Part shown: positions 3,146 through 37,550 of the stretch, piece after piece
How positions within the stretch are numbered: the stretch's first letter is position 1
Layout: the number at the start of each line of letters is the position of its first letter
NCBI GenBank assembly: GCA_903908265.1
Contig: CAIVRI010000089.1
Span: forward strand, 1 to 37,550
Reading direction: 5' to 3'
Source of the DNA: an uncultured Pseudomonadota bacterium
Lineage (GTDB): Bacteria > Pseudomonadota > Gammaproteobacteria > Steroidobacterales > Steroidobacteraceae
Length of the DNA stretch: 37,550 nt
Notes under the pieces: generated by a model
Told to the model about the DNA's origin: nothing
Database searches by the model: none
The model's input: only the letters and a program-made list of their open reading frames with translations
Made by a program: the position numbers and the translations under genes

Positions 3146-3370
3146 ATGTTGGCTCTACGTTTGCCCGAAGAGATTGAAGAGCGTCTTGCAGCGCTGGCCA
3201 AGGCGACCGGTCGCACCAAGAGTTTTTATGCCCGAGAAGCCATTGTCGAACACCTCGACGATCTGGAGGACTTGTTTCTGGCTGAGAAGAGATTGGCCCG
3301 CGTTCGCGATGGGAAAAGCAAGACCTACTCCTTGAAACAAGTGGAGGACGAGCTTGGTTTGGCGGATTGA
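3146..3370 (+). CDS. RHH antitoxin of a RelBE/ParDE-type module
   Basis: A 74-residue antitoxin. The N-terminal part ([20 protein letters not shown], then [17 protein letters not shown]) is a ribbon-helix-helix DNA-binding domain. The acidic and basic C-terminal half would wrap and neutralise the toxin. AGGAGG at 3134-3139 lies 6 nt before the ATG. It overlaps the toxin gene by 17 nt, and the palindrome at 3113-3128 is the probable autoregulatory site. It lies between the intact tRNA-Arg and its first partial copy, so the pair probably arrived with, and stabilises, an integrated islet. Family placement is by pattern; the exact RelB subfamily is not resolved. Confidence 0.85.
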
Positions 3371-3623: not shown

Positions 3624-3636
3624 TGAAAGCGACCTA

Positions 3637-3685
3637 CTGGCTACGAACCAGAGGGTCGGGAGTTCGAATCTCTCCAGGCGCGCCA
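3637..3685 (+). repeat. Partial tRNA-Arg copy (att-like remnant 1)
   Basis: A 49-nt copy of the 3' part of tRNA-Arg, starting in the anticodon stem (CTGGCTACGAACCAG) and ending in CGCGCCA. It has several substitutions relative to 2918-2994, mainly in the T-stem (GGGAG/CTCTC, still pairable) and acceptor strand. There is no 5' half, so it cannot be a functional tRNA. Such 3'-end duplicates are the usual scar of tyrosine-integrase insertion into a tRNA gene. The divergence suggests an older event, or an element that came from a related tRNA-Arg. Confidence 0.85.
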
Positions 3686-3732
3686 ACTTCCCGCTTCCTG
3701 ATCAGTCACTTGCACGCTCTCAGCTTACCCGG

Positions 3733-4564: not shown

Positions 4565-4612
4565 GCGGACCACTGCCTGCACGCGCCGCGGAAGAGTCGG
4601 TAGGCCCATTTC

Positions 4613-5200
4613 TCAATTGACCGGACCTACGAATGCGAGCAGTGGCTTGTAGTCACCGCGATCAGCGGCCTGCAGGGCGGCAATGTACTGCGCCCGGCGT
4701 TCGCCAGGCGTGGTCAACGAAGCTGTGCCCCAGTCGAGCCGCTGGCCTGTCATCTGCTGCATGAGCAGGTCCGCCATGATCCGGGCGTGCCGGCCGTTGC
4801 CGTTGGGGTAGAGATGGATGGCCACCAGACGATGGTGGAAGCGGGCCGCAAGTTCGCGCGGCTCCCACGTTGCGTGCTGCACCTGGAAGCGCACGTCGTC
4901 CAGTAGCGTGCGCAGGCGTGCCGAGATGTCGAACCAAGGTGCGCCGATGTTCTTGTCCGAGTGCCGCGGGGTGCCTGCCCAGCGCCAGACACCCGAGAAC
5001 ATCCGCTTGTGCACCCGATGCACGAAAGCTTCATCAAGCGGATCGCCACGGCGACGTTCGCCCAGCCATGAGATGGCCAGGAGGATATTGGCTTCTTCCA
5101 GCTCGTTGAGCTCGCGTTGCAGGGTGACATGACGCGGAATGAGCTGCGCGAGCTCGTCGGCATCGAGGGGTGTCGCGCCGGGGGGGTATTCGGGCTTCAT
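4613..5200 (-). CDS. Fic-domain protein, mobile mystery protein B type
   Basis: A 195-residue Fic protein. Fic enzymes usually transfer AMP or another nucleotide part onto a target side chain. The active-site loop HLYPNGNGRHAR is at residues 129-140, with catalytic His129 and the GNGRxxR anion hole. The residue usually Asp/Glu before GNGR is Asn, as I recall for the 'mobile mystery protein B' branch. MFSGVWRWAGTPRHSDKNIG (about 67-86) is the conserved segment before the Fic core. Its ATG overlaps the stop of the upstream HTH gene (ATGA), so the two are co-translated as a toxin/antitoxin-like pair. The cellular target is unknown. The pair sits between two tRNA-Arg fragments, as expected for cargo of an integrated element. 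Confidence 0.88.
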   Translation of the reverse strand: MKPEYPPGATPLDADELAQLIPRHVTLQRELNELEEANILLAISWLGERRRGDPLDEAFVHRVHKRMFSGVWRWAGTPRHSDKNIGAPWFDISARLRTLLDDVRFQVQHATWEPRELAARFHHRLVAIHLYPNGNGRHARIMADLLMQQMTGQRLDWGTASLTTPGERRAQYIAALQAADRGDYKPLLAFVGPVN

Positions 5201-13650: not shown

Positions 13651-13727
13651 GCGCCCGTAGCTCAGCTGGATAGAGTACTTGGCTTCGAACCAAGTGGTCG
13701 GCGGTTCGAATCCGTCCGGGCGCGCCA
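13651..13727 (+). tRNA. tRNA-Arg (anticodon TCG)
   Basis: A 77-nt cloverleaf. Acceptor GCGCCCG (13651-13657) pairs with CGGGCGC (13717-13723), followed by discriminator G and CCA. The anticodon stem ACTTGG/CCAAGT closes the loop CTTCGAA, anticodon TCG. It is very similar to the ACG isoacceptor at 2918. Unlike that one, I find no 3' duplicate or GCACACC doublet downstream, so this copy appears unoccupied. Confidence 0.97.
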
Positions 13728-23853: not shown

Positions 23854-26352
23854 TCAGCGTCGATAGGTGAACGTCACGCCGATCGTGCGTGGCCGGAAGG
23901 TCCACTGCCGACCCAGTCGCGTCGTTGACGAATTGACGCCATCGGCGGCAACTCCTGGATTGATCGTCCAGTCGGAGTTTGTGACCGTGTGGCTATCGAG
24001 CAGGTTGTCGATAAAGGCCGCCACCTGCCAATCACCAAACTGCATGCCGAGGCGTGCCGTGACGAAGTTCGTGGCGGGCAGCGTATATTTGGCGTCATCG
24101 TACTGCAGCGTACCCGGGTCTTGTCCCGGTGAAGCCCACTTCGCTTTGCTCTGGTTTTGCCAGTCGCCACGCAGGAATGACTCGTGACCGAAGGCGTCGA
24201 ACTTGTATTCGAGGCCTAGCGATACCGTAACAGGTGAGCCGGGCTGGCCGCCTTGTCCCACAATGGCATCGCCCTTCGCGGCAACGGGCAGCACGCTGGT
24301 GTTGGTGCCGACATAACTCGACCTAGAGTATCGCGCGTCGGTGTAACCGGCGGCAAATTCGGCCGTTAAGCTGGGCGTGACCAGCCAGTCGGCCTGAATG
24401 TCGGCGCCCTTGGCAACGGCCTCGCCCAAGTTCTGGATCCAACTAATCTGGCAGACGGGGGGTAGTACCGTCTGTTGGATGTTGTGCCATTTGATGTAGT
24501 AGATGCTGGAAGCCAGCCGGAACCGATTGTTGAAGTTGTTCTTGCTGCCAACCTCGTAGCTCTGCACCGTGTCTGAGTCATAGGTGGCCGGTGAGTTGGT
24601 GATCCCGAAGTTTGCAAAGTCGCCTTCGCAGGCTGCCTGTGGGACCGGATTATTCGCACCGCCTGGGCGGAAACCCTTTGAATAGGTCGCGTAGTACAGG
24701 TTGCTCGGATCGTGCTGGAACGACACGCCGAGTTTCGGTGTGAATACGGACTCGGAATGGCTATTAGTGAGATAGGTGTCGTAGTCAAATAACTGCGCAG
24801 CCCCGGTGACCGTGTCGACGGAGAATTTCACCTTCGCAAAACGGCCGCCTGCGATGAGTTTTACGGAATCGGTGACGGCATACGTCGCCTCGCCGTAGAC
24901 CGCGGTTTGCTCGTCCTTGGCATGGGTGCGCAGGAAGTAAGACGACTGCGGGTCAATTCCCAGCACGGTCTCACCGCAGTGCGGTGTCGGGGCTGAGTCA
25001 CAGGGGCGCGGATTGCTGCCGAGCCCTACGCCAAAATAGTCGGTAACGCTGGCATAGCCTGCCGCCTCGAAGAAGGTGCCGAGTTGAGGGTCGTGCAACT
25101 GCTCTAAATAATCCTGTTTGTTTGAGCCATAGAATAGGCCGGCCGTCCAAAACAGTTTCGAATTGGGGTCATTCGACTGCAAACGAATTTCCTGTACGAA
25201 GTTCCGTTGACCGTTGTTGATCGTCGCGGGTGCGCGATAGTTCAAGCCCGGCGTGAGTGGGTGCACGCCGTTCTGGTCGAGTAGTAGTGAGCCGGCCTCA
25301 AGACCGAGCAGTGACTGGTAGAAGCCAAGGTTGTACAGCGTACCGTCATAGCCGGTCGCTTCGTCACGTTTGTAGTAGGAGGTGTTCGAGATGAAGCGCA
25401 CTGCCCCTAAATCGGCCTCTATTTTCAGGGCGGGCAGATAGAATTTATCCGGTGAGGACCGCGTTGTTGGGTTTGCGCTCACGAAACGATGCGCGGACGG
25501 GTCCGAGTACAGCGTCCAGTAGTTGGTGACGTCATTTGCTTGGCGATCTTGATAGTAGAGGCTTGGCGTGATTGTCCAATTGTCGTTGGGCGACCAGACC
25601 GCGGCTAAACGAATCAGATCCGTGTCGGTGCGGTTGGCATGCTTATCTAATACCGTGGTGGGGTCGTAGGCATCGACTCGATCGACCCAGCCGCCGTCAT
25701 GGCGGTGCCAAACGCTGATTCGGGCGCCTAGTTTGCCCTCAATAAGGGGGCCGCCCACGGCGTAGCCGGCCTCATAACTGGCTTCGCCGCCGGGGTTGAA
25801 GGACGCCTCGGCCCGTGCGTTGACGCTGGTTTTCGACAGCGACGGTTGGACCGTGATGTAGCGCACTGTGCCGCCCTCAGAGCCGGCACCGAATAGGGTG
25901 CCTTGCGGGCCGCGCAGCACTTCGACGCGTTCGAGGTCGAAGGATTTGGGCAGCGATTCGTCTGGATTGAAGGCAATAGACCGCATCTGAATGGGGGTGT
26001 CGTCCACATAGATGCCGGTTGTGCCCGCGCCGCCGGAGGAGGCGATGCCCCGGATGGAGATATTGGCGGTGCCGGAGTTGTCGACGTGGATGCCGGGGGT
26101 AAAGCGCGCGATATCTTCGATGTCTTTGATGCCGCGCAGGTCCAGGCCTTCGGCGGTCATGGCGGTGACGCTGACCGGTACTTTGCTGAGGGCTTCTTCG
26201 TGGCGGGTCGCGGTCACTACGATTTCATCTAGTCCACCCGTTTGGGGGGCTTCAGCCGCCACTGTGGCTGCCGCGGCGAGTGCCGTGGCGAGTGCCGTGG
26301 CACAGACCGACGCGAGTCGCCCCGATGGACGGGCTTTAGAGGGAGTAAACAT
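23854..26352 (-). CDS. TonB-dependent outer-membrane receptor
   Basis: An 832-residue receptor that imports a ligand across the outer membrane using TonB/proton-motive energy. Signal peptide to about residue 34 (AAAATVAAEA). The TonB-box-like DEIVVTATRHEEALSKVPVS lies near residue 43. The plug domain includes IRGIASSGGAGTTGIYVDD and VEVLRGPQGTLFGAGSEGG. A 22-strand barrel follows, ending with the aromatic-rich GVTFTYRR. Start supported by GAGG 8 nt upstream. The class is the broad organic-nutrient type; no siderophore genes are near. It diverges from the SpdH-like gene across a 201-bp region with a palindrome, suggesting co-regulation with polyamine genes; the ligand is unproven. A perfect 12-bp tandem duplication (26275-26298) lies in the signal peptide. 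Confidence 0.95.
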   Translation of the reverse strand: MFTPSKARPSGRLASVCATALATALAAAATVAAEAPQTGGLDEIVVTATRHEEALSKVPVSVTAMTAEGLDLRGIKDIEDIARFTPGIHVDNSGTANISIRGIASSGGAGTTGIYVDDTPIQMRSIAFNPDESLPKSFDLERVEVLRGPQGTLFGAGSEGGTVRYITVQPSLSKTSVNARAEASFNPGGEASYEAGYAVGGPLIEGKLGARISVWHRHDGGWVDRVDAYDPTTVLDKHANRTDTDLIRLAAVWSPNDNWTITPSLYYQDRQANDVTNYWTLYSDPSAHRFVSANPTTRSSPDKFYLPALKIEADLGAVRFISNTSYYKRDEATGYDGTLYNLGFYQSLLGLEAGSLLLDQNGVHPLTPGLNYRAPATINNGQRNFVQEIRLQSNDPNSKLFWTAGLFYGSNKQDYLEQLHDPQLGTFFEAAGYASVTDYFGVGLGSNPRPCDSAPTPHCGETVLGIDPQSSYFLRTHAKDEQTAVYGEATYAVTDSVKLIAGGRFAKVKFSVDTVTGAAQLFDYDTYLTNSHSESVFTPKLGVSFQHDPSNLYYATYSKGFRPGGANNPVPQAACEGDFANFGITNSPATYDSDTVQSYEVGSKNNFNNRFRLASSIYYIKWHNIQQTVLPPVCQISWIQNLGEAVAKGADIQADWLVTPSLTAEFAAGYTDARYSRSSYVGTNTSVLPVAAKGDAIVGQGGQPGSPVTVSLGLEYKFDAFGHESFLRGDWQNQSKAKWASPGQDPGTLQYDDAKYTLPATNFVTARLGMQFGDWQVAAFIDNLLDSHTVTNSDWTINPGVAADGVNSSTTRLGRQWTFRPRTIGVTFTYRR

Positions 26353-26442: not shown

Positions 26443-26458
26443 ATCTGTGATCGCAGAT
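26443..26458. promoter_or_regulatory. Candidate operator in divergent region
   Basis: ATCTGTGATCGCAGAT is an inverted repeat matching at 7 of 8 arm positions. It lies between the divergent TonB receptor and SpdH-like genes, 2 nt upstream of a possible -35. It is a natural candidate for the GntR/FCD regulator encoded in the operon. That link is inference. Confidence 0.45.
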
Positions 26459-26460: not shown

Positions 26461-26490
26461 TTGACTGCACCCCCATCGGAACGGTAGTTT
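26461..26490 (+). promoter_or_regulatory. Candidate promoter of the polyamine operon
   Basis: TTGACT (26461-26466) and TAGTTT (26485-26490) with an 18-nt spacer lie 63 nt before the SpdH-like start. The -35 is good and the -10 weak, which suits a promoter under activation or repression. Confidence 0.4.
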
Positions 26491-26553: not shown

Positions 26554-28479
26554 ATGGCCAAGCGTCCGTCCGATCGGTTATTGGGAATGGGCGCGGCCAT
26601 CACTCGACGCGACTTCGTGCAAGGGGCCGTGCTCGGCGCCGGTGCGCTGGCATTGCCGGGCTTGGTAGGGTGCTCACGCCGAAACGTTCCGTTGGCGCAG
26701 GCCATGCAGGATCGGATGGGTTATTACCCGCCGACGTTGACTGGATTGCGTGGCAGTCATCCCGGTGCCTTTGAGGCTGCGCATGCGTTGCGCGACGGCA
26801 CCGCCCATGCCGCGCCACTCGATCTTGGTGAGCAATACGATCTGGTGATTGTTGGCGGTGGGATCAGTGGGCTGTCAGCCGCTCTCCTCTATCGCAAGGA
26901 GCGTCCCGACGCGCGCATTCTGATCCTTGAAAATCATGATGACTTTGGTGGTCATGCAAAGCGCAACGAGGTAGCCATTGATGGAACGATCCGCCTCCTG
27001 AATGGAGGCACCTACTCCATTGAAAGTCCAAAGCCCTTTAGCGCGGTTGCAGATAGCGTCTTGCGCGAGATCGGTATTGATGCGCCAGCCTTGGCCCTGA
27101 AAACCCAGAAAAAAGATTTCTACAGGTCGCTCGGTTTGACCCAGGGCATTTTCTTCGACCGCGAAACCTTCGGGGCGGATCATTTGGCACCAGGCTACCG
27201 CCAGCGCAGCTGGGCAGAATTTCTGAAAGGGGCTCCGTTGTCAGCGGCAGCGAAGCGCGACCTGGAGCGTGCTGAGGTTGGTAACACGGACTATTTTGTC
27301 GGTTTGGGTGCTGTCGCCAAAAAAGAAAAACTATTGCGCATGAGCTATCTGAGCTATCTGCGTGACGTGGTCAAGGTGGACCCTGCCGTACTTGCGCTCT
27401 ACCAAGCGCTCACCCAAGGATGGTGGGGAGTTGGCATCGATGCCATTAGCGCGCTAGACGCTTGGGGTTCTGAGATGCCCGGTTTCCATGGTCTGCGGTT
27501 GCCGGCGGGATCCATCCCCGGGATGGGCTACACGCCAGCCGGTTTTACCGATACCGGCGGTTCGGTGTTCATGCATTTCCCCGACGGCAATGCCTCCGTA
27601 GCACGCGCCTTGGTCCGTAAACTGGTGCCGGCCGCCGTGCCAGGATCCACCATTGAGGATCTGGTCACGGCCCGAGTTAATTATCGGCAATTGGATCGTG
27701 AGGACGAGCCGGTACGCATTCGCTTGAATTCGATCGTACTCGGCGTGCATCACGACGAGCCGACCATCGAACGCTCGCGTAGTGTGCGCATCGCTTATCA
27801 CCGCGATGGTCGGGTGCTGGAAGTGCGTGCGAAGCAGTGCATTTTGGCTTGCTATAACAACATTATTCCCTATCTCGTGCCCGAATTGCCTGAGTCGCAG
27901 AAGGCCGCGTTGCGTGAGGCGATCAAGACGCCACTCGTTTACACCTCCGTTGCTCTATCCAACTGGCGCGCATTTTCCGAGCTCGGGGTACATTCTATTT
28001 ATGCGCCAGGCTCTTATCACACAACTATTCGCTTGAATCCGACGGTCGATATTGGTGCTTATCAGAGCCCCCGCTCGCCAGACGAACCTAACTTGCTAGC
28101 GATGGTTAGGACTCCGTGTAAGCCGGGCTTGACAGAGCATGAACAAAATAAAGTTGGTCGCGCTGAACTGCTCGCAACGCCGTTTGAAATTTTTGAGCGT
28201 GAGATACGCGATCAGCTGCGGCGCATGCTCTCCGGGACATCATTTGATCCTGTGAAAGACATACGAGCCATCATCGTCAATCGTTGGCCGCATGGGTATG
28301 CACCGGAAAACAACTCGCTGTTCGATCCTGATGTTGCTCCCGGTGAAGAACACTATGTGAGAGCGAGAGCCCGATTTGGGAGGATCGCGATCGCCAATTC
28401 TGATGCCGGCGCTGGCGCCTACACGGATGTCGCGATTGAGCAGGGGCATCGTGCGGTTTATGAATTACTCGGTGCCTAA
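26554..28479 (+). CDS. Tat-exported SpdH-like polyamine dehydrogenase (FAD)
   Basis: A flavoprotein resembling spermidine dehydrogenase SpdH, which cleaves spermidine to an aminoaldehyde and a diamine outside the cytoplasm. It has 641 residues. Twin-arginine motif TRRDF (17-21) and hydrophobic stretch are followed by lipobox LPGLVGC (Cys40), so a Tat-routed lipoprotein is likely. The SpdH-type segment YYPPTLTGLRGSHPGAFEAA (57-76) leads into the Rossmann motif YDLVIVGGGISGLSAA (95-110) and HDDFGGHAKRNE. The C-terminal FAD block includes RIAIANSDAGAGAYTDVAIE. ATG 26554 follows GGGGGTGA. It is first gene of the operon, ahead of the transaminase. The SpdH family may include other amine substrates, so spermidine itself is inference. 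Confidence 0.85.
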   Translation: MAKRPSDRLLGMGAAITRRDFVQGAVLGAGALALPGLVGCSRRNVPLAQAMQDRMGYYPPTLTGLRGSHPGAFEAAHALRDGTAHAAPLDLGEQYDLVIVGGGISGLSAALLYRKERPDARILILENHDDFGGHAKRNEVAIDGTIRLLNGGTYSIESPKPFSAVADSVLREIGIDAPALALKTQKKDFYRSLGLTQGIFFDRETFGADHLAPGYRQRSWAEFLKGAPLSAAAKRDLERAEVGNTDYFVGLGAVAKKEKLLRMSYLSYLRDVVKVDPAVLALYQALTQGWWGVGIDAISALDAWGSEMPGFHGLRLPAGSIPGMGYTPAGFTDTGGSVFMHFPDGNASVARALVRKLVPAAVPGSTIEDLVTARVNYRQLDREDEPVRIRLNSIVLGVHHDEPTIERSRSVRIAYHRDGRVLEVRAKQCILACYNNIIPYLVPELPESQKAALREAIKTPLVYTSVALSNWRAFSELGVHSIYAPGSYHTTIRLNPTVDIGAYQSPRSPDEPNLLAMVRTPCKPGLTEHEQNKVGRAELLATPFEIFEREIRDQLRRMLSGTSFDPVKDIRAIIVNRWPHGYAPENNSLFDPDVAPGEEHYVRARARFGRIAIANSDAGAGAYTDVAIEQGHRAVYELLGA

Positions 28480-28513
28480 GCGGCGCCGTCACTGACAAGA
28501 GAGGTCAAAAAAA

Positions 28514-29911
28514 ATGAGCATTGGACAACTGCCTGCTAGCGAAGCCGCGGAATTGAAGCGGTTGGATGTCGCTCACCATCTGCCAGGTCAGACGGACTAT
28601 AAATTGCAGGCGCAGTTGGGTGGCAGTCGCATCATCACCAAGGCGTCTGGCTGCCTGATCCATGACGCAGACGGCAATGAACTACTGGATGGTATGGCAG
28701 GACTGTGGTGTGTCACCGTCGGGTATGGTAGGGACGAACTCGCCAAGGTGGCTTATGAGCAAATGCTTGAGCTGCCGTACTACAACACATTCTTTAAGAC
28801 CGCGAGCGCACCTGCGGTACGGCTCGCAGCCTCGGTGGCGGGGAAACTCGGCAATGGCCTGACGCACGTGTTCTTCAATTCGTCTGGCTCCGAGGCGAAT
28901 GACACCGTGTTCCGTCTCGTGCGGCACTACTGGACAGTGAAAGAGCAGCCCTGGCGCCAGATCATCATCGGTCGCTGGAATGGCTACCACGGCTCTACCG
29001 TTGCGGGCGCCAGCCTCGGCGGCATGAAGGCCATGCACGCGCAGGGTGGACTACCCGTACCGGGAATTGAGCACATCATGCAGCCTTATCTTTTTGGTGA
29101 TGCCTTTGGTGAGGACCCCGAGGCATTCGCGATTCGAGCGGCAAATGCCCTTGAGGAGCGCATTCTCCAGGTAGGCCCGCATAACGTTGCTGCTTTTATT
29201 GGTGAGCCTGTGCAGGGCGCTGGTGGCGTGATTATCCCGCCGCCAGGCTACTGGACCCGTATTGAGGCGATCTGTCGCAAGTACGGCATCCTCTTGGTCT
29301 GTGACGAGGTGATTTGCGGCTTTGGGCGGCTGGGACGCTGGTTTGGCTTTCAGCACTTTGGCATTCGCCCCGACATCGTGACGATGGCTAAGGGCCTCTC
29401 CTCTGGATACCTGCCAATTTCCGCGACGGCGATGTCGACTGAGATCGTCGAGACGCTGCGAGAGGGTGGGGAGTTCGTGCATGGCTACACGTATTCCGGG
29501 CACCCCACCAGTGCTGCTGTCGCCGTGCGCAATCTGGAGATCATCGAGCGTGAGCACCTGGTGGAACGAACGGCGGAGGATACGGGACCTTATATCGCCA
29601 ACGCACTGAACCGCCTGCGGGACCATCCACTCGTCGGCGAGGCAAGATCCCTAGGCTTGATCGGTGGTATCGAAATCGTGTCCAAGAAAGGCACCAACGC
29701 ACGGTTCGGTGGCGAAGAAGGTCACGCCGGTCCCATCGTCCGAGATATCTGTATCCGCCGCGGCCTGATGGTTCGCGCAATCCGCGATACGATTGTTTTT
29801 TGTCCGCCCTTGATTGTCAGTCATGCCCAGCTGGACCGGCTGGTAGACACAGTGCGTGCTGCCTTAGATGAGGCCACGCCCACACTAATGGCGCTGACGA
29901 AGGTTGGATGA
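28514..29911 (+). CDS. Class-III aminotransferase, SpuC-like (putrescine-pyruvate)
   Basis: A 465-residue PLP-dependent omega-transaminase. The family-typical N-terminus (LDVAHHLPGQTDYKLQAQLG, 17-36) and the motifs NSSGSEANDTVFRLVRHYW (122-140), YHGSTVAGASLGG (158-170), CDEV (263-266) and Schiff-base Lys293 in MAKGLSSGYLP match polyamine/beta-alanine transaminases such as SpuC. SpuC moves the amino group of putrescine to pyruvate, giving 4-aminobutanal and alanine. AGAGG lies about 9 nt before the ATG, and the stop overlaps the regulator gene (ATGA). Context with SpdH- and Puu-like enzymes supports an amine substrate. Cadaverine or diaminopropane remain possible. Confidence 0.88.
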   Translation: MSIGQLPASEAAELKRLDVAHHLPGQTDYKLQAQLGGSRIITKASGCLIHDADGNELLDGMAGLWCVTVGYGRDELAKVAYEQMLELPYYNTFFKTASAPAVRLAASVAGKLGNGLTHVFFNSSGSEANDTVFRLVRHYWTVKEQPWRQIIIGRWNGYHGSTVAGASLGGMKAMHAQGGLPVPGIEHIMQPYLFGDAFGEDPEAFAIRAANALEERILQVGPHNVAAFIGEPVQGAGGVIIPPPGYWTRIEAICRKYGILLVCDEVICGFGRLGRWFGFQHFGIRPDIVTMAKGLSSGYLPISATAMSTEIVETLREGGEFVHGYTYSGHPTSAAVAVRNLEIIEREHLVERTAEDTGPYIANALNRLRDHPLVGEARSLGLIGGIEIVSKKGTNARFGGEEGHAGPIVRDICIRRGLMVRAIRDTIVFCPPLIVSHAQLDRLVDTVRAALDEATPTLMALTKVG

Positions 29912-30579
29912 AATTGCCCGAAAAGAAAGAACAGGATGGCTCGGTACGCGCATCTGTGCATGCTGAGTTGCGCCTGCGCTTTTTGACCGGCCGAATTACT
30001 CCGGGAACGCATCTTTCGACGCGCCGTTTGGCGCATGAGTTGGGCGTCAGTCAGATGCCCGTTCGAGATGCGCTCGGACGTTTGGCTGCGGACGGCGCGG
30101 TAGATATTCGCTCTAAGCGCCGAATTATCGTGCCGCCGATGACCGCTGCGCGACATGCGGATCTACTGGTTTGCCGAGAGTTGCTTGAGCCTGCTGCGGC
30201 CCAGGCCGCGATTGCAAGACTGGACGATGTGGCGATTCAGCGGCTTGAGGTCGTCGACAAGGCGATTGGCGATGCGCTGGATAGCGGAGACGTTGACGCC
30301 TACATGCGTGCCAATCATGAGTTTCATTTCACGATTTATCGGGCACAGCCGCACCCAACGCTCGTTCAGTTGATTGAAACGCTGTGGTTGCAGTTCGGTC
30401 CCTATATGCGCATTGTTTATGATCGTTATGACGGTGAGCGACTTGCGGATCAACATGTGTGCGCTATCCGCGCCATTCGGCGGCGCCGTGCGGCTGACCT
30501 GTCCCGGGCCATCCTGCTTGATATCCGTGACGGCATGAATTTGTTGCAACGGAACGGTTTTGCCGTTGATCCATCATGA
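29908..30579 (+). CDS. GntR-family regulator with FCD domain
   Basis: A 223-residue transcription factor. The N-terminal winged helix (residues about 12-78) shows LRLRFLTGRITPGTHLSTRR and LAHELGVSQMPVRDALGRL, the classical GntR pattern. The helical FCD ligand domain follows, with its metal-binding-type Asp/His residues (RANHEFHFTIYRAQPHPTL, about 134-152, then DQHVCAIRAIRRRR). It lies inside the operon, overlapping its neighbours by 4 nt on both sides, so it is co-produced with the enzymes and probably autoregulates. Candidate operator: the palindrome at 26443-26458. The effector is presumably a polyamine or catabolite (inference). Confidence 0.92.
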   Translation: MKLPEKKEQDGSVRASVHAELRLRFLTGRITPGTHLSTRRLAHELGVSQMPVRDALGRLAADGAVDIRSKRRIIVPPMTAARHADLLVCRELLEPAAAQAAIARLDDVAIQRLEVVDKAIGDALDSGDVDAYMRANHEFHFTIYRAQPHPTLVQLIETLWLQFGPYMRIVYDRYDGERLADQHVCAIRAIRRRRAADLSRAILLDIRDGMNLLQRNGFAVDPS

Positions 30580-31880
30580 GTGTTTATGGCAGTACGCTGA
30601 CGCCGTCAATCCAGCATGTGGACACCTACTACGCCGCAACACGACGTGAACAGGCGGATGGGCTGCCTTTCTTAGGCGATACCCAGACAGACGTCTGCGT
30701 TGTGGGCGGTGGCTACGCGGGTCTCGGTACCGCGTTACATTTGGCTCGTCGCGGGATCGACGTGACATTGCTTGAACAATCACGCCTCGGTTGGGGCGCG
30801 TCTGGTCGTAACGGCGGGCAAGTGCATGTCGGGATGCGTCGTGACCAGCTGTGGCTCGAGAAGACTCTGGGGGAGGCTGCCGGGCAGCGATTCTGGCGAC
30901 TCGCATTAGCTGCCCGCGGACACCTCGATGAGCTGATTGAAACCTACGGGATCGATTGCAGTTATCGTCCCGGTCTGATGCATGTCGACCACAAACCCCG
31001 CTATGTTGACGAAACTCGTCAGCATGTGGAATTCATGCGTAGTCGCTACGGGTACACCGATCTTTCGTTCTTAAGTGGTGATGCGTTGGCCTCACTTTTA
31101 TCCAGCCCATGCTACTACGGTGGGAGTATGGATGCGCGAGGAGGGCACCTGCAGGCGCTTGACTGGGCGCTCGGCATGGCACGCGCAGCGCTATCGCTTG
31201 GGGCACGCTTGCACGAAGGTGTTGAGGTCACCGGCATCTGTCGAAAAGATGCCGGATTCGTCGTTACAACGCCTCAAGGAGCCGTGCGCGCACGTCGCGT
31301 GGTCTTGGCGTGCAATGGCTACCTGCGTCGCTTGTCGACTCGTGTGCGTGGCAGAGTCATGCCGATCAATAATTATGTGGCGGTTACGGCGCCGCTTGGA
31401 GAGCAGGCGCGGCAGTTAATTCGCAATGGCGCCGCTGTGTCTGACTCCCGGTTCGTCGTGAACTATTTTCGCGTCACGCCGGATGATCGCCTATTGTTCG
31501 GTGGTGGAGAAAATTATAGCTACCGTTTCCCGAGAAATATTAGTGAATTTGTGCGACCCCACGTTGAGTCGGTCTTTCCTCAGTTGCGGGGCGTGCGTTT
31601 CGATTATGCGTGGGGTGGCACCCTCGGTATAACCTCGACTCGCATGCCTTACGTGCGGGAGTTGGAGCCGGGACTATTAAATCTCAGCGGCTTCTCCGGG
31701 CTCGGCGTCGTCCTCGCCCCTTATGTTGGCAAGATTGTTGCCGATGCCTTGGCGGGCGAAGCTGCTTCTTTCGAACTCCTATCGAGTCTGTCGGTACCAC
31801 CCTTTCCGGGTGGCCCTTTGTTGCGGTGGCCAACTATGGTCGCGGCCATGCTGTATTACGCACTCAGAGATCGTCTCTGA
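30576..31880 (+). CDS. FAD-dependent amine oxidase, PuuB-like
   Basis: A 434-residue DAO-family flavoprotein close to gamma-glutamylputrescine oxidase PuuB, which oxidises gamma-glutamylputrescine to the aldehyde with release of ammonia and peroxide. SIQHVDTYYAATRREQADGL (11-30) is the typical PuuB-like N-terminus, followed by the dinucleotide motif VVGGGYAGLG (42-51), LEQSRLGWGASGRNGGQ, and the C-terminal NLSGFSGLGVVLAPYVGKIV. No signal peptide, so it is cytoplasmic, unlike the SpdH-like enzyme. Its stop codon lies inside a strong hairpin (31860-31884) that separates it from the ligase gene. The neighbouring PuuA-like ligase supports the gamma-glutamyl route. Confidence 0.88.
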   Translation: MSVYGSTLTPSIQHVDTYYAATRREQADGLPFLGDTQTDVCVVGGGYAGLGTALHLARRGIDVTLLEQSRLGWGASGRNGGQVHVGMRRDQLWLEKTLGEAAGQRFWRLALAARGHLDELIETYGIDCSYRPGLMHVDHKPRYVDETRQHVEFMRSRYGYTDLSFLSGDALASLLSSPCYYGGSMDARGGHLQALDWALGMARAALSLGARLHEGVEVTGICRKDAGFVVTTPQGAVRARRVVLACNGYLRRLSTRVRGRVMPINNYVAVTAPLGEQARQLIRNGAAVSDSRFVVNYFRVTPDDRLLFGGGENYSYRFPRNISEFVRPHVESVFPQLRGVRFDYAWGGTLGITSTRMPYVRELEPGLLNLSGFSGLGVVLAPYVGKIVADALAGEAASFELLSSLSVPPFPGGPLLRWPTMVAAMLYYALRDRL

Positions 31881-31884
31881 GTGC
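31860..31884 (+). promoter_or_regulatory. Intra-operon hairpin at the puuB/puuA junction
   Basis: A perfect 11-bp stem, GCACTCAGAGA (31860-31870) with TCTCTGAGTGC (31874-31884), closes a 3-nt loop TCG. It includes the oxidase stop codon and ends 21 nt before the ligase ATG. There is no U-tract (ACACGT follows), so it is not a classical terminator. It may instead act as an RNA-stability or processing element, or a protein site. It contrasts with the 4-nt overlaps elsewhere in the operon. Confidence 0.6.
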
Positions 31885-31905
31885 ACACGTCGAGTAGAGG
31901 GCATC

Positions 31906-33270
31906 ATGCATGAACGGAAACACGGAACCTATGCTGCAGTAAGTGAGTGGGACGAATTTCTTGTCAACAACCCCGATATACAGGCGATCGACGCTTTTGT
32001 CATTGATTTGAATGGCAACTTGCAGGGTAAGCGGCTCGAAGCGGCGGACGCTCCAGGATTGTTCAAGAATGGGGTGCTTTTTTCGGCATCCTCTTTAGTC
32101 GCGGACGTGCGTGGCTACGGCATGGAAGAGCACGGATATGGCAGTTCTGATGGTGATCCGGATGGAGCGGCCATGCCGCTCCCTGGGACGCTGGTTCGAG
32201 CCTCTTGGGCTCGCCAGCCGACCGCGCAAGTCTTGTGCGAAATGACCAACATACAATCCGGGCGCCCTTTCTGGTACGACCCCCGCCATGTGCTCGCTGA
32301 TGTGGTCGCGCGATGTCGGGCCGAAGGAATTCATCCGGTCGTCGCTTGCGAACTCGAGTTTTATTTGGTTGATCCCAAACGCGCCGAAGATGGCAGCCTG
32401 CGCTTAGGAGCGCAGCCCGGTCGGACGCCACCGGCGCGCGGCGCGAACCTCTCGATGGAAGCGGTTGACGAGTTTGGTGAATTTCTCGAACGGATCCATG
32501 TTGCTGCGAAAGCGCAAGGTTTGCCGGTCGCCGGCTGTGTATCCGAATATGGTGTCGGTCAGTTTGAAGTGAACCTGAGCCATCTGCCAGATCCCGTGGT
32601 AGCCGCAGATCAAGCGGCTCTACTGAAGCGTTTGGTGAAGGGTGTCGCGCGCTCATTGGGGATGGAAGCGACCTTCATGGCAAAGCCCTTCGTTGCGGAA
32701 GCGGGTAATGGGCTACATATACATGCCAGCATAGTCGATGAGGCGGGGTGCAATCGATTCGGCGGCCCAGACGGCGAACAATTATTGCAGCACGCAATCG
32801 GTGGCATGCAAGCATTACTGTACGATTCGTTCGGTCTTTTCGCTCCTAACTTCAACTCGCAGCGCCGTTATTTGGGTTCCTTCGTGCCAACCTCTCGGTC
32901 GTGGGCAGAGAACAATCGCAGCGTTGCGTTTCGAATACCGGCGCAGCACGGCGCCGCGCGCCGGGTCGAGCATCGCGTGGCGGGCGCCGACGCCAGCCCG
33001 CATCTGGTCATGGCCGCGATGCTGGCGGGGTTACTCCACGGCATCCGGCATAAGTTGGATCCCGGCGTTCCGGCGGTGGGAAGAAGCGTTGGTGGTGATC
33101 CTGAATTCCCAGGTGACCTGATCGTGGCATTGAACCGGTTGAGTGAGGCCAAGCTACTAAGCGAGTACATTCCGAAGGCCTTTCTGGACGTTTTTGTGAT
33201 CACCAAGCGAGGTGAGTACCTTGATCTGATCGAGTCTATTTTCCCCCGCGAGCATGACTTTTATGTCTGA
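31906..33270 (+). CDS. Glutamine-synthetase-like ligase, PuuA/SpuI type
   Basis: A 454-residue glutamine-synthetase-family enzyme. PuuA/SpuI relatives join glutamate to putrescine (ATP-dependent), the entry step of the gamma-glutamyl pathway. The beta-grasp N-terminus IDAFVIDLNGNLQGKRLEAA matches PuuA rather than GlnA. Catalytic-domain motifs are VVACELEFYLVDP, GQFEVNLSHLPDP, HATFMAKPF-like EATFMAKPF, GNGLHIHAS, FAPNFNSQRRY and VEHRVAGADASPHLVMAAML. ATG 31906 is taken because AGAGGG lies 5 nt upstream; the open frame extends further up into the oxidase gene without a sensible start. No adenylylation tyrosine motif like that of GlnA is evident. It overlaps the next gene. Confidence 0.9.
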   Translation: MHERKHGTYAAVSEWDEFLVNNPDIQAIDAFVIDLNGNLQGKRLEAADAPGLFKNGVLFSASSLVADVRGYGMEEHGYGSSDGDPDGAAMPLPGTLVRASWARQPTAQVLCEMTNIQSGRPFWYDPRHVLADVVARCRAEGIHPVVACELEFYLVDPKRAEDGSLRLGAQPGRTPPARGANLSMEAVDEFGEFLERIHVAAKAQGLPVAGCVSEYGVGQFEVNLSHLPDPVVAADQAALLKRLVKGVARSLGMEATFMAKPFVAEAGNGLHIHASIVDEAGCNRFGGPDGEQLLQHAIGGMQALLYDSFGLFAPNFNSQRRYLGSFVPTSRSWAENNRSVAFRIPAQHGAARRVEHRVAGADASPHLVMAAMLAGLLHGIRHKLDPGVPAVGRSVGGDPEFPGDLIVALNRLSEAKLLSEYIPKAFLDVFVITKRGEYLDLIESIFPREHDFYV

Positions 33271-34624
33271 AACGTTGCGCGGTATCGGGCGTGCACGTCT
33301 GGCAAGCTTTGTGCAGAAAGAGACCTGCGAGTTCGTTGCGGCGCATCCGCGTTCGCAGGCCGCTGCTGCGGGGGCCCAAGGTTTCTATGCCGGCGTGCCG
33401 ATGCATTGGATGCTTGATTGGCCGTCACCATTCCCATTAGCGGTTGCAGAGGCGCGCGGGGCTCGACTGCAGACGATTGATGGAGATGCACTCAATGACT
33501 TTTGCCTCGGGGATACCGGATCCATGTTCGGGCATTCGCCGGAGCCCGTCTTGCGCGCATTAGAAAGGCAGGTTGCGCGAGGCTTTACGTATATGTTGCC
33601 CACCGCAGATGCCTATGCGGTAGGTCAGTTACTGCAGGAGCGGTTTGGTTTGCCACACTGGCAGGTGGCTACTACGGCATCTGATGCGAATAGGTTCGCG
33701 TTGCGTGTTGCCCGTGCCGTGACCCGCCGACCGCGGATCTTGGTCATCCATGGTTGCTACCACGGCGCGGTAGATGAGACCTATGTCGGCCTTTATGACG
33801 GTGTCGCGCGTAATCGCCCAGGGCTCATTGGCCAGGTGATCGACCAGACGGCGCACACGCGCGTCGTTGAGTTTAATGATTTGCCCGCTCTAGAGGCCGC
33901 ACTGGCTGACGAGACGGTTGCGGTCGTTCTGGCGGAACCGGTCATGACCAACTGTTGTATGGTGCTTCCAGACCCCGGATACCATACGGCGCTCCGTGAG
34001 ATGACGCGGCGTACCGGGACGTTACTGCTCATAGACGAAACCCACACGATTTCGAGTGGATGGGGTGGTTACACCCGCCGGCATCATCTTGACCCTGACA
34101 TGTTCGTATTGGGTAAACCTATCGCGGGCGGTACCCCGGCGAGCGTCTGGGGATTTACGGATGCGGTGGCGACGCGCTGGGATGCAATCCGGGCAACCAA
34201 GGAGCCGGGTCACTCTGGATTAGGGACGACCCTTTCTGCCAATGCCTTGTCGATGGCGCTGATGCGAGCCACGCTCGAACAGGTCATGACCGAATCGGCT
34301 TACGCCCATATGGAACAGCAGGCTAATCGCCTCGCCGACGGCTTAGCGCGTTCAATTTTGGCGCATGCGTTGCCTTGGCATGTAGTGCGGGTCGGCGCGA
34401 GAGTGGAGTTTATCTGCGCGCCCGGACCGTTGCGCAACGGTACGGCCGCCACGGCGGCGCACTGCGGGGAAATCGAGGCGGCAGTGCACCTAGGGCTAGT
34501 GAACCGCGGCTGTCTGATTGCCCCGTTTCACAACATGATGCTGGTCTGCCCGGCAACGGAGTCGGTGCAAATAGATCAGTTAGTCCATGCGTTCGGCGAG
34601 GTGCTTAACGACTTGGCTGGTTAA
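33254..34624 (+). CDS. Second class-III aminotransferase, glutamate-semialdehyde-aminomutase-like
   Basis: A 456-residue PLP enzyme of aminotransferase class III. The general layout resembles glutamate-1-semialdehyde 2,1-aminomutase: GDTGSMFGHSPEPVLRAL (86-103), ATTASDANRFALRVARAVTR (139-158), HGCYHGAVDET (166-176), LIDETHTISSGWGG (259-272) and Schiff-base Lys288 in VLGKPIAGGTPASVWG. It differs from true HemL (GKIIGGG), so haem synthesis is not implied. It is the last gene of the polyamine operon and overlaps the ligase gene by 17 nt, or 8 nt if ATG 33263 is used. The amine or amino-aldehyde it handles is unknown; pathway membership is from context. Confidence 0.85.
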   Translation: MTFMSETLRGIGRARLASFVQKETCEFVAAHPRSQAAAAGAQGFYAGVPMHWMLDWPSPFPLAVAEARGARLQTIDGDALNDFCLGDTGSMFGHSPEPVLRALERQVARGFTYMLPTADAYAVGQLLQERFGLPHWQVATTASDANRFALRVARAVTRRPRILVIHGCYHGAVDETYVGLYDGVARNRPGLIGQVIDQTAHTRVVEFNDLPALEAALADETVAVVLAEPVMTNCCMVLPDPGYHTALREMTRRTGTLLLIDETHTISSGWGGYTRRHHLDPDMFVLGKPIAGGTPASVWGFTDAVATRWDAIRATKEPGHSGLGTTLSANALSMALMRATLEQVMTESAYAHMEQQANRLADGLARSILAHALPWHVVRVGARVEFICAPGPLRNGTAATAAHCGEIEAAVHLGLVNRGCLIAPFHNMMLVCPATESVQIDQLVHAFGEVLNDLAG

Positions 34625-34649: not shown

Positions 34650-35510
34650 TCAGCGGTCCGTTTGTTTGCCGCGGCGCATCAGACTGAGCGCTAACACCGC
34701 TGAAGCAACCATCAGAAATAGACTCACAGCGTTCAGTACCGGGGTAGCACCCTCCCGCATACGTCCGTACATCAATATGGTGAGCGGCGTATCGGCGCCG
34801 ACGAGCATCAACGTGGTGTTGAAGTTCTCAAATGACATCAGGAAAGCGATGACGGCGGAGCCGACCATAGCTGGGCGCAGATAGGGCAGGGTGATGTGCC
34901 ATAGTACGGCCGTGCGGGAGGCGCCAAGATTGAGCGCGGCTTCTTCCAAAGTATGATCAAAACGCTTTAACCGCGCACTGACTGTTAACGTGGCGATAGC
35001 TGCGATGTAGGAGAACTGGCCCGCAACGACCAACGGCAGCCCAGGGCGCAAAAATTCGATATCTAATCCAAATGTGCTATCGGCGAAGTCAGCAAGTCGA
35101 CTCGCGAAAGCCAGAATCGAGATGCCGAGGATGACGCCTGGAATGACCAATGGGACCAACATCATCATCGACAGCGCTTGACGTCCCGGGAATTTTGCAC
35201 GTTCCATGAGAAACGCGTTCGTTGTGCCGACAATAACCGAGAGCGCGGTAACCCAGACGGCCACCACTGCACTAGTCAGAATGCTACCGAGTAGTTCCTC
35301 GTCATGAAAAAGTCCAACGCGCCCAGTAGCCTCGTTACCTAAAAACCAGTCGAGGGTAAACCCGTGCCACGGTGGCGCCGGATACGGCGCGTCATTGAAA
35401 GCAAATACGGCAACCGTCAGCAACGGCAAAAAAAGAAAGACCAGAAACACGGCCAGGTAGATCGCGTTTGTAGCGCGTATCCATCGAGAAGAGGGGAGTG
35501 AGGGAATCAT
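34650..35510 (-). CDS. Polyamine-type ABC transporter permease, PotC/PotI-like
   Basis: A 286-residue inner-membrane permease of the spermidine/putrescine (PotC-type) class. Six hydrophobic segments are visible, from IYLAVFLVFLFLPLLTVAVF near the N-terminus. The EAA loop EEAALNLGASRTAVLWHITL, then PYLRP, docks the ATPase, and SFENFNTTLML-type sequence follows. ATG 35510 overlaps the stop of the PotB-like gene (ATGA), so the longer upstream frame to 35621 is rejected. It pairs with the upstream permease to form the channel. The substrate is inferred from the facing polyamine operon. Confidence 0.9.
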   Translation of the reverse strand: MIPSLPSSRWIRATNAIYLAVFLVFLFLPLLTVAVFAFNDAPYPAPPWHGFTLDWFLGNEATGRVGLFHDEELLGSILTSAVVAVWVTALSVIVGTTNAFLMERAKFPGRQALSMMMLVPLVIPGVILGISILAFASRLADFADSTFGLDIEFLRPGLPLVVAGQFSYIAAIATLTVSARLKRFDHTLEEAALNLGASRTAVLWHITLPYLRPAMVGSAVIAFLMSFENFNTTLMLVGADTPLTILMYGRMREGATPVLNAVSLFLMVASAVLALSLMRRGKQTDR

Positions 35511-36385
35511 GCGCGGCGCATCACGTCGGCGAAGCGCTGTCCACTGGCTTTGAGCCCGAGCCAAACGATGGTAGTCGAGAGGCCGAGCAGAAGAAAGCCA
35601 AAAGCAGCACCCTGTTCCCAATTGAAACGAGTGATGAACTGGTTATAAATCTGCTCGGTGAACCACTGTGAGCTCGTTCCGCCGAGCAGATTGGGCGTTA
35701 GATAGTTGCCCAACGTGAGCATGAACACGACAATGCAGCCCGCCGTGATACCGGGTGCAGCATGCGGAATCACGATGTCGCGCAGGACTGAGAAGGCCCC
35801 CGCTCCAAGATCATAGGCTGCCTCAATGAGCGAATTGTCCAGTGTCTCCAGACTATTGACGAGAGGGACCACCATAAAAAGTAGGGAGGTATAGACCAGA
35901 CCGACTAGAATTGTGGCGTCGTGGTACAGCAGTTCCGGCGGCGCTGCGGCTATTCCCAGTTTGACCAGTAGTGCCGGAAGGACGCCGGATTCCCGCAGCA
36001 GAATCATCCAGCCGAGAGTCCGTACGGTTTCGCTGACCCAGAATGGAATCAAACAGACCAAAAACAGTAGCGTGGCTTTCCGGCCTTGCGCGATTTTCGC
36101 GATCGTCCACGCGACGGGAAAAGCGATGAGCAGCGTAATCAAGGTCGACACAGCGGATACGAGCGCCGTGCGGACAAAGACATGCCAGTACAGTGGCTCT
36201 GTGAAAAATGTGCGGTACTGGGCGAGACTAGTCACGTATTCGCGCGGGGCAACACGTTCTCGGATTGATACCATCGCCAGATCAGCGTGCGGTAAAATAA
36301 TCGTTAATAGAAGCCATAATACTGCGGGCGCCAGCAGCAGCAATAGTACAGCGCGCCCCCGCAAGTTCTGTCCGGTGTCGATCAC
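35507..36385 (-). CDS. Polyamine-type ABC transporter permease, PotB/PotH-like
   Basis: A 292-residue permease. The first membrane segment (AVLLLLLAPAVLWLLLTIIL) is near the N-terminus. The PotB-type loop SLAQYRTFFTEPLYWHVFVR, the conserved PFWVSETVRTLGWMILLRES and the EAA motif IEAAYDLGAGAFSVLRDIVI, then PHAAPG, are all present. GTG 36385 is chosen: it overlaps the ATPase stop (GTGA) and has GGGAG about 8 nt upstream, whereas the GTG at 36409 lies further inside the ATPase gene. Gene order ATPase, PotB-like, PotC-like matches many putrescine/spermidine systems. Confidence 0.9.
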   Translation of the reverse strand: MIDTGQNLRGRAVLLLLLAPAVLWLLLTIILPHADLAMVSIRERVAPREYVTSLAQYRTFFTEPLYWHVFVRTALVSAVSTLITLLIAFPVAWTIAKIAQGRKATLLFLVCLIPFWVSETVRTLGWMILLRESGVLPALLVKLGIAAAPPELLYHDATILVGLVYTSLLFMVVPLVNSLETLDNSLIEAAYDLGAGAFSVLRDIVIPHAAPGITAGCIVVFMLTLGNYLTPNLLGGTSSQWFTEQIYNQFITRFNWEQGAAFGFLLLGLSTTIVWLGLKASGQRFADVMRRA

Positions 36386-37500
36386 CGAGATGCTCCCGCA
36401 ATGAAGCACACCGCACGTTCTGGATCAAATGCAAAGTGAATTAATTCGCCGGGAATAAGGTCTGAAAATTGACCGGTTTGCGGTAATGCCACTCGGAACT
36501 CAAGGTTGGATTTGCTTTCTCGGATTAAGACTGCCGAGTTCGCGCCGTCGAACAGGAGACTATCGACCCGTCCCACATGGCTGCGCTGGGTGCTCGGCAG
36601 ATCCGCAGCAGCACGCGCGAGTGTCGCCGCTTCGGGCCGAACAAAGGCAATTGCGCTATGACCAACGACAAGGCTATCGCGAACCCGCGCCTCTAACAGC
36701 CAGCCATCGTCTGTAGCAATCGTGGCGATCCCATGCGACAGCGCTGCAACGCGTCCTGTGACTCGATTGCTGGAGCCAACAAATCCAGCGACAAACGGTG
36801 TAGTAGGCTCGTAATACAGTGATTGCGGGCTACCGAGTTGCTCAAAACGGCCGGCGTTCATGACCCCGACGTGATCTGACAAAACGAGCGCTTCAGACTG
36901 GTCGTGCGTGATATAGACGAAGGTGGTTCCAAAGGCCGCTTGCAGCTGCTTGAGCTCGATCTTCATGTGTTCGCGCAACTTAAGGTCGAGTGCGCCGAGT
37001 GGTTCATCGAGCAGTAGAAGGGTGGGTTCCAGCACGAGACTGCGAGCGATTGCGACGCGCTGACGCTGACCACCGGAAAGCTCATCGACTCGTTTGCCCT
37101 GTGCGCCACCGAGGCCGACGCGCTCGAGCATTGCCTCTGCTTTGCGCAGGCGCTCTAATCTGCCGACGCCGCGACGGGCGAGACCGAAGGCAACGTTCTC
37201 AGCGACATTCATCATTGGAAACAGTGCGAGCTGCTGGAAAACCATGTTCACTGGGCGTTGATTTGGAGCGACACCCGCCATAGACCGGCCGCCGATACGT
37301 ATGTCGCCGGAATCCGGCTGAATGAAGCCAGCGATCATGCGCAGCAAGGTAGTCTTGCCGCAGCCGGAGGGGCCCAAGATGGAAAAGAAGCTGCCATGCG
37401 GGACGCTAAATGATAGTTCATCCACTGCCGCGTGGCTGCCAAACGTCTTTTTTACGGCGTTGACCTCGAGGTCCGCTGCGCCACTCTTGGAGCTATTCAA
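36382..37500 (-). CDS. Polyamine-type ABC transporter ATPase, PotA/PotG-like
   Basis: A 372-residue ATP-binding subunit. Walker A GPSGCGKTT is at 43-51, Q-loop Gln89 in VFQQLALFPMM, the ABC signature LSGGQRQ at 141-147, Walker B LLLLDEP at 161-167, and the D-loop and H-loop (ITHDQSEAL) follow. The C-terminal TOBE domain (about 240-370) is of the PotA/MalK kind and often senses inhibitors. It starts at TTG 37500, overlapping the stop of the upstream binding-protein gene (TTGA). No better start is available upstream because that gene's reading frame ends there. First of three chained overlaps in the transporter operon. Confidence 0.92.
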   Translation of the reverse strand: MNSSKSGAADLEVNAVKKTFGSHAAVDELSFSVPHGSFFSILGPSGCGKTTLLRMIAGFIQPDSGDIRIGGRSMAGVAPNQRPVNMVFQQLALFPMMNVAENVAFGLARRGVGRLERLRKAEAMLERVGLGGAQGKRVDELSGGQRQRVAIARSLVLEPTLLLLDEPLGALDLKLREHMKIELKQLQAAFGTTFVYITHDQSEALVLSDHVGVMNAGRFEQLGSPQSLYYEPTTPFVAGFVGSSNRVTGRVAALSHGIATIATDDGWLLEARVRDSLVVGHSAIAFVRPEAATLARAAADLPSTQRSHVGRVDSLLFDGANSAVLIRESKSNLEFRVALPQTGQFSDLIPGELIHFAFDPERAVCFIAGASR

Positions 37501-37550
37501 TTCGCTGCCTTGATGCGATCGAGGACTTTGCCCTCGATTTCCTCTAGACC
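37497..37550 (-). CDS. C-terminal end of probable PotD/PotF-like binding protein
   Basis: Only the last 17 codons are in the window, reading GLEEIEGKVLDRIKAAN then TGA (37499-37497). The position directly upstream of a PotA-like ATPase, with overlapping TTGA, and the helical, charged end suggest the periplasmic substrate-binding protein of the same transporter. The sequence shown is too short to identify by itself. Confidence 0.6.
   Translation of the reverse strand, partial: GLEEIEGKVLDRIKAAN

What the first reader, a model, noticed from the sequence alone, without database searches (positions are those of the whole stretch)
26554..34624. Hybrid polyamine operon joining three catabolic routes
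One coupled operon encodes an exported SpdH-like dehydrogenase, a SpuC-like transaminase, PuuA- and PuuB-like gamma-glutamylation enzymes, an internal GntR/FCD regulator and an extra aminotransferase. These routes are usually encoded separately. PuuC (aldehyde dehydrogenase) and PuuD (hydrolase) are absent from the window, so the aldehyde product must be handled elsewhere or by the second aminotransferase. This may be a variant pathway with extracytoplasmic cleavage first.
Basis: partly seen in the sequence, partly recalled or inferred. Interest (0 to 1): 0.72.

Follow-up and report, generated by a model that had tools for sequence, protein, structure and literature searches.

The report
Polyamine-degradation operon with exported dehydrogenase
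A bacterial operon that probably cuts spermidine-like polyamines outside the cytoplasm and then breaks the pieces down inside by a known glutamate-tagging route; it is a real, conserved gene set with its own switch, built from known enzymes in an unusual combination.

Summary
In detail: 26554-34624 carries six closely packed co-directional genes: SpdH-like, SpuC-like, GntR/FCD, PuuB-like, PuuA-like and a second class III aminotransferase (AT2, PRK07046). The reading needs corrections. (1) The missing PuuC and PuuD partly reflect a contig end: the contig stops at 37550 inside potD, and contig C153 ends in the rest of that gene, preceded by aldehyde dehydrogenase and amidotransferase genes. These are linked to the operon in 7 of 10 congeners with enough sequence. 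A PuuD homologue lies on C77. (2) Transaminase, gamma-glutamylation and transport genes already cluster in Pseudomonas (spu); the unusual member is SpdH. (3) SpdH keeps both haem-b histidines and a Tat-like start. A TonB receptor gene lies beside 20 of 37 close SpdH genes against 1 of 57 distant ones; in congener G003 SpdH is absent and only a receptor remnant remains, with the other five genes kept. (4) A palindrome occurs once in the assembly, beside the operon's -35 box, and at the same place (up to one mismatch) in 17 of 17 copies with the GntR gene. (5) AT2 adjoins a PuuA-like synthetase in 79 of 80 best-matching loci, less often in remoter ones. Substrates are untested.

The parts
23854..26352 (-). 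TonB-dependent outer-membrane receptor, divergent from the operon; frequent partner of this SpdH subfamily
   Evidence: Plug and barrel domains over Pfam cut-offs; within 1.5 kb of 20 of 37 close SpdH genes vs 1 of 57 distant
26443..26458 (.). 16-bp palindrome ATCTGTGATCGCAGAT, candidate operator of the operon's GntR/FCD regulator
   Evidence: only site in the own assembly at up to 1 mismatch; exact in 12 of 15 genomes of the genus, own included; not found in the SpdH loci scanned that lack the GntR gene
26461..26490 (+). sigma-70-like promoter: TTGACT, 18-bp spacer, TAGTTT, just after the palindrome
   Evidence: read directly; TTGAC follows the palindrome in all 14 upstream regions printed
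26554..28479 (+). SpdH-like FAD/haem-b dehydrogenase with Tat-like start
   Evidence: 7d9i 456.8 bits; H77 and H580 align with haem ligands His54 and His562
28514..29911 (+). SpuC-like class III aminotransferase (AT1, PRK07480)
   Evidence: 688 bits, cut-off 510; PDB 7ypm 762 bits
29908..30579 (+). GntR/FCD transcriptional regulator
   Evidence: PF00392 and PF07729 over cut-off
30576..31880 (+). PuuB-like FAD oxidoreductase (DAO)
   Evidence: 39% to E. coli PuuB over 97%; PF01266 246 bits
31906..33270 (+). PuuA-like gamma-glutamyl amine synthetase
   Evidence: 39% to E. coli PuuA over 96%; catalytic residues kept, ammonium-site Asp50 and Glu327 replaced
33254..34624 (+). second class III aminotransferase (AT2, PRK07046), frequent neighbour of PuuA-like synthetases
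   Evidence: 701 bits, cut-off 425; GS adjacent in 79 of the 80 best loci
34650..35621 (-). PotC-like permease
   Evidence: PotC 110 bits, below equivalog cut-off 326
35507..36409 (-). PotB-like permease
   Evidence: PotB 174 bits, below equivalog cut-off 348
36382..37500 (-). PotA-like ATPase
   Evidence: PhnT2 308 and PotA 307 bits, both below their equivalog cut-offs
37497..37550 (-). C-terminal end of a PotD-like binding protein cut by the contig end
   Evidence: GLEEIEGKVLDRIKAAN*; 11 of 11 relatives printed read WYPAIP, one residue, then this end, and C153 ends ..WYPAIP plus two bases

Best explanation
A self-regulated polyamine catabolic operon with an extracytoplasmic front end. Shown here: gene content, coupling, conservation, haem-ligand and Tat-like motif conservation, PuuA-type acceptor-site residues, a single palindrome at the promoter, linkage to a TonB receptor and a PotDABC importer, and further amine-catabolic genes next door. 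Inferred: a triamine such as spermidine reaches the periplasm, perhaps aided by the TonB receptor. Tat-exported SpdH cleaves it (known products of the P. [quoted passage not shown] PotDABC imports the diamine. The synthetase caps one amine with glutamate; the PuuB-like oxidase or one of the aminotransferases turns the free amine into an aldehyde; an aldehyde dehydrogenase and a PuuD or amidotransferase (next-door cluster, C77 or elsewhere) finish to an omega-amino acid. The GntR/FCD protein represses from the palindrome until an amine or intermediate is present.
For: Gene set with SpdH in 13 of 14 congeners, TonB receptor beside it in 12 of those 13 (the 13th, L039, is cut by its contig end). 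Convergent PotDABC in 11 of 14. ALDH, alcohol dehydrogenase and amidotransferase genes linked beyond PotD in 7 of 10 with enough sequence. Own C153 and C89 ends meet in PotD. Both haem histidines in 24 of 24 sequences, window included. GS residues. Natural rearrangement G605 (L172): TonB-SpdH-PuuB-PuuA-PuuD-PuuA2-PotFGHI on one strand. Another family, G461 (L179): TonB-SpdH-SpdH-PuuA-SpuC. Palindrome unique and tied to the regulator. Products of SpdH: PMC9397018 section 23.
Against: No activity, induction or binding is shown. PuuA and PuuB homologues are 39% identical and below curated equivalog cut-offs. SpdH relatives are many in this order (96 of 246 genomes at E<=1e-100), so this subfamily may have another amine substrate. 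G605's cluster lacks SpuC, GntR and AT2, and G003's lacks SpdH, so the parts need not form one obligate pathway. Of 24 close SpdH genes outside the same-genus operon copies, 16 have no TonB receptor within 1.5 kb. The lipobox-like cysteine is not conserved. Three of 10 congeners lack the next-door cluster, and its ethanolamine permease suggests its own substrate.
Confidence: 0.62

Rival explanations
1. The core (SpuC-like, GntR, PuuB-like, PuuA-like, AT2) is a diamine operon fed by PotDABC, and TonB-SpdH is a separable module that joined the same promoter region and may serve another amine or a polyamine conjugate.
For: G003 keeps the core and its palindrome but has no SpdH there and only 60 matching receptor residues. 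Close SpdH genes sit beside TonB receptors with no GS within 8 kb in L048, L174, L182, L188 and L189, though a PuuB-like oxidase lies about 5 kb away in L188 and L189.
Against: SpdH is first behind the shared promoter in the 13 congeners that have it; SpdH with PuuA-like genes recurs in G605 and in another family, G461. G003 is 85% complete.
Confidence: 0.3
2. The operon handles ethanolamine-type or other monoamines, as the ethanolamine permease cluster next door might suggest, and the polyamine label comes from homology only.
For: Ethanolamine permease 577 bits, cut-off 382, in the linked cluster of most congeners that have it.
Against: That cluster has its own GS; SpdH, SpuC-like and Pot-type transport point to di- and triamines; three congeners keep operon plus PotDABC without that cluster nearby.
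Confidence: 0.08

Closest known systems
P. aeruginosa / P. putida spu clusters (spuABCDEFGH, spuI)
   Same: SpuC-type transaminase, glutamine-synthetase-like gamma-glutamylation genes and a polyamine ABC transporter together (passages of PMC10606097)
   Different: SpdH, a TonB receptor, a PRK07046 gene and a GntR/FCD gene are not mentioned in the passages seen
E. coli puu cluster
   Same: PuuA- and PuuB-like enzymes and an in-cluster regulator
   Different: no PuuC, PuuD, PuuP or PuuE counterpart in the operon (AT1 and AT2 are 28% and 26% to PuuE); regulator is GntR/FCD; adds SpdH and two class III aminotransferases
P. aeruginosa SpdH (PA3713, locus tag recalled)
   Same: full-length homology, both haem-b histidines, Tat-like start
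   Different: here encoded in a gamma-glutamylation operon beside a TonB receptor; the P. aeruginosa gene context was not examined
Alphaproteobacterial AT2-GS gene pairs and PA5522-PA5523
   Same: PRK07046-type aminotransferase beside a PuuA-like synthetase in 79 of 80 loci; PA5522 glutamine synthetase and PA5523 aminotransferase have consecutive locus tags and both rise in a table of PMC13024080 (passages)
   Different: gene order reversed here; that PA5523 is PRK07046-type and is PDB 5ykr is recalled, not tested

Membership tests
spermidine dehydrogenase (SpdH) | full-length sequence match to a solved SpdH | tested here: met
   7d9i, residues 16-638 vs 3-619, E 1e-135
spermidine dehydrogenase (SpdH) | haem-b ligands His54 and His562 | tested here: met
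   H77 and H580; histidine in 24 of 24 sequences, window included (ligands from passages of PMC12564564)
spermidine dehydrogenase (SpdH) | oxidises spermidine | not testable with these tools
   needs an enzyme assay
gamma-glutamylputrescine synthetase (PuuA) | GS metal, ATP and glutamate residues kept, ammonium-site Asp50 and Glu327 replaced (roles recalled) | tested here: met
   E129, E131, E212, E220, H269, R321, R339, R344, E357, R359 kept; D50 to S, E327 to F (E. coli PuuA: P, Y)
gamma-glutamylputrescine synthetase (PuuA) | NCBIfam equivalog NF045547 cut-off 650 bits | tested here: not met
   146 bits
gamma-glutamylputrescine oxidase (PuuB) | full-length DAO homologue of E. coli PuuB | tested here: met
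   39%, 97% coverage, E 5e-91
gamma-glutamylputrescine oxidase (PuuB) | acts on gamma-glutamyl amines | not testable with these tools
   best NCBIfam model is L-pipecolate oxidase, 207 of 600 bits
SpuC-type aminotransferase | PRK07480 subfamily cut-off | tested here: met
   688 bits, cut-off 510
E. coli puu cluster | PuuC and PuuD in the same cluster | tested here: not met
   none in the operon; PuuD homologue on C77, ALDHs next door and elsewhere
GntR/FCD self-regulated operon | palindrome at own promoter, tied to presence of the regulator gene | tested here: met
GntR/FCD self-regulated operon | regulator binds the palindrome | not testable with these tools
   needs a binding assay

The most novel reading that the evidence does not exclude
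This SpdH subfamily and its TonB-dependent receptor form an outer-membrane-to-periplasm module for scarce or bulky polyamines or polyamine conjugates: energised uptake, haem-linked cleavage in the periplasm, import of the pieces by Pot transport and gamma-glutamylation inside. Alongside, PRK07046 aminotransferases would be a transaminase alternative to PuuB acting on gamma-glutamylated amines, encoded with PuuA-like synthetases in many Proteobacteria.
Probability: 0.3. Interest if true: 0.62.

Novelty: new variant of a known kind. Interest (0 to 1): 0.43.

Why it matters
It gives SpdH a gene context: an outer-membrane receptor, a promoter element of its own and a gamma-glutamylation pathway. 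That makes the questions of where polyamines are first cut, and how they cross the outer membrane, directly testable. It also suggests a pathway for PRK07046 aminotransferases through their frequent pairing with PuuA-like synthetases.

Tried and rejected
Rejected: 'PuuC and PuuD absent' as a plain biological feature (contig edge). Rejected: SpdH as a conserved lipoprotein; the LVGC cysteine is in only part of the homologues. Rejected: naming the ALDH at C80:91801-93261 the PuuC of this pathway; it is 48% identical to E. coli PuuC but below the PuuC cut-off (541 of 850), and its neighbours look like Pot-type permeases, a TetR-type and a Rieske-type gene (names recalled from sequence). Rejected: the C80 oxidase-ALDH pair as the only beta-alanine source; a PanD match is present. 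An Rfam scan at gathering thresholds gave only two tRNAs. No exact overlap joins C153 and C89; adjacency rests on the shared gene and on relatives. Literature, all in the held open-licence library: no paper held both 'TonB-dependent' and 'spermidine dehydrogenase'. Two held 'TonB-dependent receptor' with 'polyamine uptake': in one I saw passages, unrelated; the other I did not open. None held 'glutamate-1-semialdehyde' with 'gamma-glutamylputrescine' and 'aminotransferase', nor 'gamma-glutamylputrescine' with 'Mesorhizobium' and 'aminotransferase'. I ran no structure prediction and no signal-peptide predictor.
Full report
OBSERVATION. AT1/GntR and GntR/DAO overlap by 4 bases and GS/AT2 by 17; the other gaps are 34 and 25 bases. 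Families: SpdH full length; PRK07480 (AT1) and PRK07046 (AT2) aminotransferases over cut-off; GntR and FCD over cut-off. The PuuB-like protein is 39% identical to E. coli PuuB and the PuuA-like protein 39% to E. coli PuuA. Two other synthetases of the genome are less like PuuA: 35% (C77) and 29% (C153).

CONTIG EDGE. The window is a whole contig, C89, of 37550 bases. Its last bases on the minus strand encode GLEEIEGKVLDRIKAAN*, the end of a PotD-like protein. Contig C153 ends in a PotD-like gene at ..KNVRWYPAIP plus two bases. All 11 relatives printed with this gene end read WYPAIP, one residue, then G(L/F)EE(I/M)EG.. (two further rows of that output are chance matches). So the two contig ends meet in one gene, though they share no overlap. 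Before PotD on C153 lie a GS-like gene, an aldehyde dehydrogenase, an iron-type alcohol dehydrogenase, an amidotransferase and an ethanolamine permease (577 bits, cut-off 382).

Among 14 congeners, PotDABC follows the operon convergently in 11, directly or (G002, G011) after a few kilobases. The other three contigs end first (G006, G012, and G008 after 5 kb). Beyond PotD, the ALDH, alcohol dehydrogenase and amidotransferase genes follow in 7 of the 10 with enough sequence (G002, G003, G005, G007, G009, G011, G014). The permease has no room in G002, and the GS was not in the held part of G003. They do not follow in G001, G010 and G013; in G004 the contig ends. L094 is taken as the G003 contig because both are 26598 bases and both lack SpdH. 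A PuuD homologue (41% to E. coli PuuD; 196 bits, cut-off 266) sits on C77 with a GS and PotFGHI-like genes. Seventeen aldehyde dehydrogenase matches, fragments included, are in the assembly.

SPDH. P. aeruginosa SpdH is a flavocytochrome with haem b held by His54 and His562 (passages of PMC12564564). Counting on the chain printed, these align with H77 and H580 here. Both columns are histidine in 24 of 24 sequences, window included. The first arginine of the Tat-like motif is R in 24 of 24, and RR is seen in every printed row. The known products of the P. [quoted passage not shown]

TONB LINK. I examined 94 SpdH genes in fetched loci: 37 at 53% identity or more to the window's, 57 below. A TonB receptor ORF lies within 1.5 kb in 20 of 37 close ones and 1 of 57 distant ones (Fisher p 2e-9). 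Leaving out 13 same-genus copies it is 8 of 24 (p 1.7e-4). Cautions: the 53% line was drawn after seeing the matches, relatedness is not corrected for, some loci are cut by contig ends, and the receptor model was seeded with three receptors that lie beside close SpdH genes. Eighteen of the 20 receptors are 47-83% identical to the window's; L179 is 24% and L182 a weak match. In G003 (85% complete) SpdH is absent from the operon and only 60 receptor residues match at 55%, while the palindrome, AT1, GntR, DAO, GS, AT2 and PotDABC remain. G003 has another SpdH elsewhere (L050) without a receptor nearby.

REGULATION. All 14 upstream regions printed (13 of the genus, own included, and L040) carry a palindrome just before a TTGAC box. 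ATCTGNGATCNCAGAT occurs once in the own assembly at up to one mismatch, and exactly, once per genome, in 12 of 15 genomes of the genus, own included. The other three (G008, G009, G011) have one-mismatch copies. The two loci outside the genus with the GntR gene also have it: L040 exact, L046 with one mismatch. That makes 17 of 17. At up to two mismatches none was found in the SpdH loci scanned that lack the GntR gene (L172, L179, L048, L049, L174, L175, L188, L189 and others) or in 756 kb of background. In the window alone one match at up to two mismatches is unremarkable (11 of 100 shuffles had one or more); the weight lies in exactness, uniqueness and conservation.

SECOND AMINOTRANSFERASE. 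A PuuA-like GS is immediately adjacent in 79 of 80: 75 downstream and 4 upstream (the 4 are of the window's genus); the exception is L077. Among 369 genomes of the class, 9 have the gene at E<=1e-60; 6 of the 8 besides the own genome have a GS beside it (L151-L156), L157 and L158 do not. Of six more loci taken from the order, three have the GS (L176, L177, L186) and three at 47-55% identity do not (L184, L185, L187). The own genome also has a second, 42-43% copy at the end of C134 with no GS seen. In G027 the adjacent GS is only 37% like the window's. G023 has the operon without AT2.

SURVEY. In 246 genomes of the order, 96 have SpdH at E<=1e-100 (match listing cut, so locations are a lower bound) and 35 have AT2 at the same level. 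By reading the listed coordinates, 9 have both within 15 kb on one contig: 8 in the genus, own included, and G027 of the family. Other SpdH-PuuA arrangements: G605 (TonB-SpdH-PuuB-PuuA-PuuD-PuuA2-PotFGHI) and G461 of another family (TonB-SpdH-SpdH-PuuA-SpuC).

SYNTHETASE CHEMISTRY. The GS-like protein keeps ten catalytic residues and lacks the two ammonium-site acids, as E. coli PuuA does (residue roles recalled).

CONCLUSION. The finding is a real, lineage-conserved variant of known polyamine catabolism, with an extracytoplasmic first step supported by sequence. It is not shown to be a missing-enzyme pathway. The TonB-SpdH pairing and the AT2-synthetase pairing are the parts worth testing.

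Noticed in passing
G000 C80 = L230:1164-6514: An oxidase-aldehyde dehydrogenase pair (2117-4809) sits directly beside genes that look like coaX, panC and panB (names recalled from sequence), suggesting amine-derived beta-alanine feeding pantothenate synthesis; a PanD match is nevertheless present.
   Followed up: partly
G000 C80 = L230:6599-9488: AptA-like omega-aminotransferase (680 bits, cut-off 500) next to a methylmalonate-semialdehyde dehydrogenase (678 bits, cut-off 448.5): a possible beta-alanine route that could take diaminopropane-derived carbon.
   Followed up: partly
L068, L208, L222, L223: Six of 57 more distant SpdH genes, in four loci, lie within 1.5 kb of an aldehyde dehydrogenase, in L068 and L208 as SpdH-ALDH-SpdH.
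   Followed up: no
G016 (several contigs): One related genome gave nine matches to SpdH, six of them near full length at 31-57% identity: an expanded family with unknown substrates.
   Followed up: no
window 3775-4509 and 4613-5200: A transposase-like ORF beside a Fic-like ORF (both by eye, recalled motifs).
   Followed up: no
window 2918-2991 and 13651-13724: Two tRNA genes.
   Followed up: no
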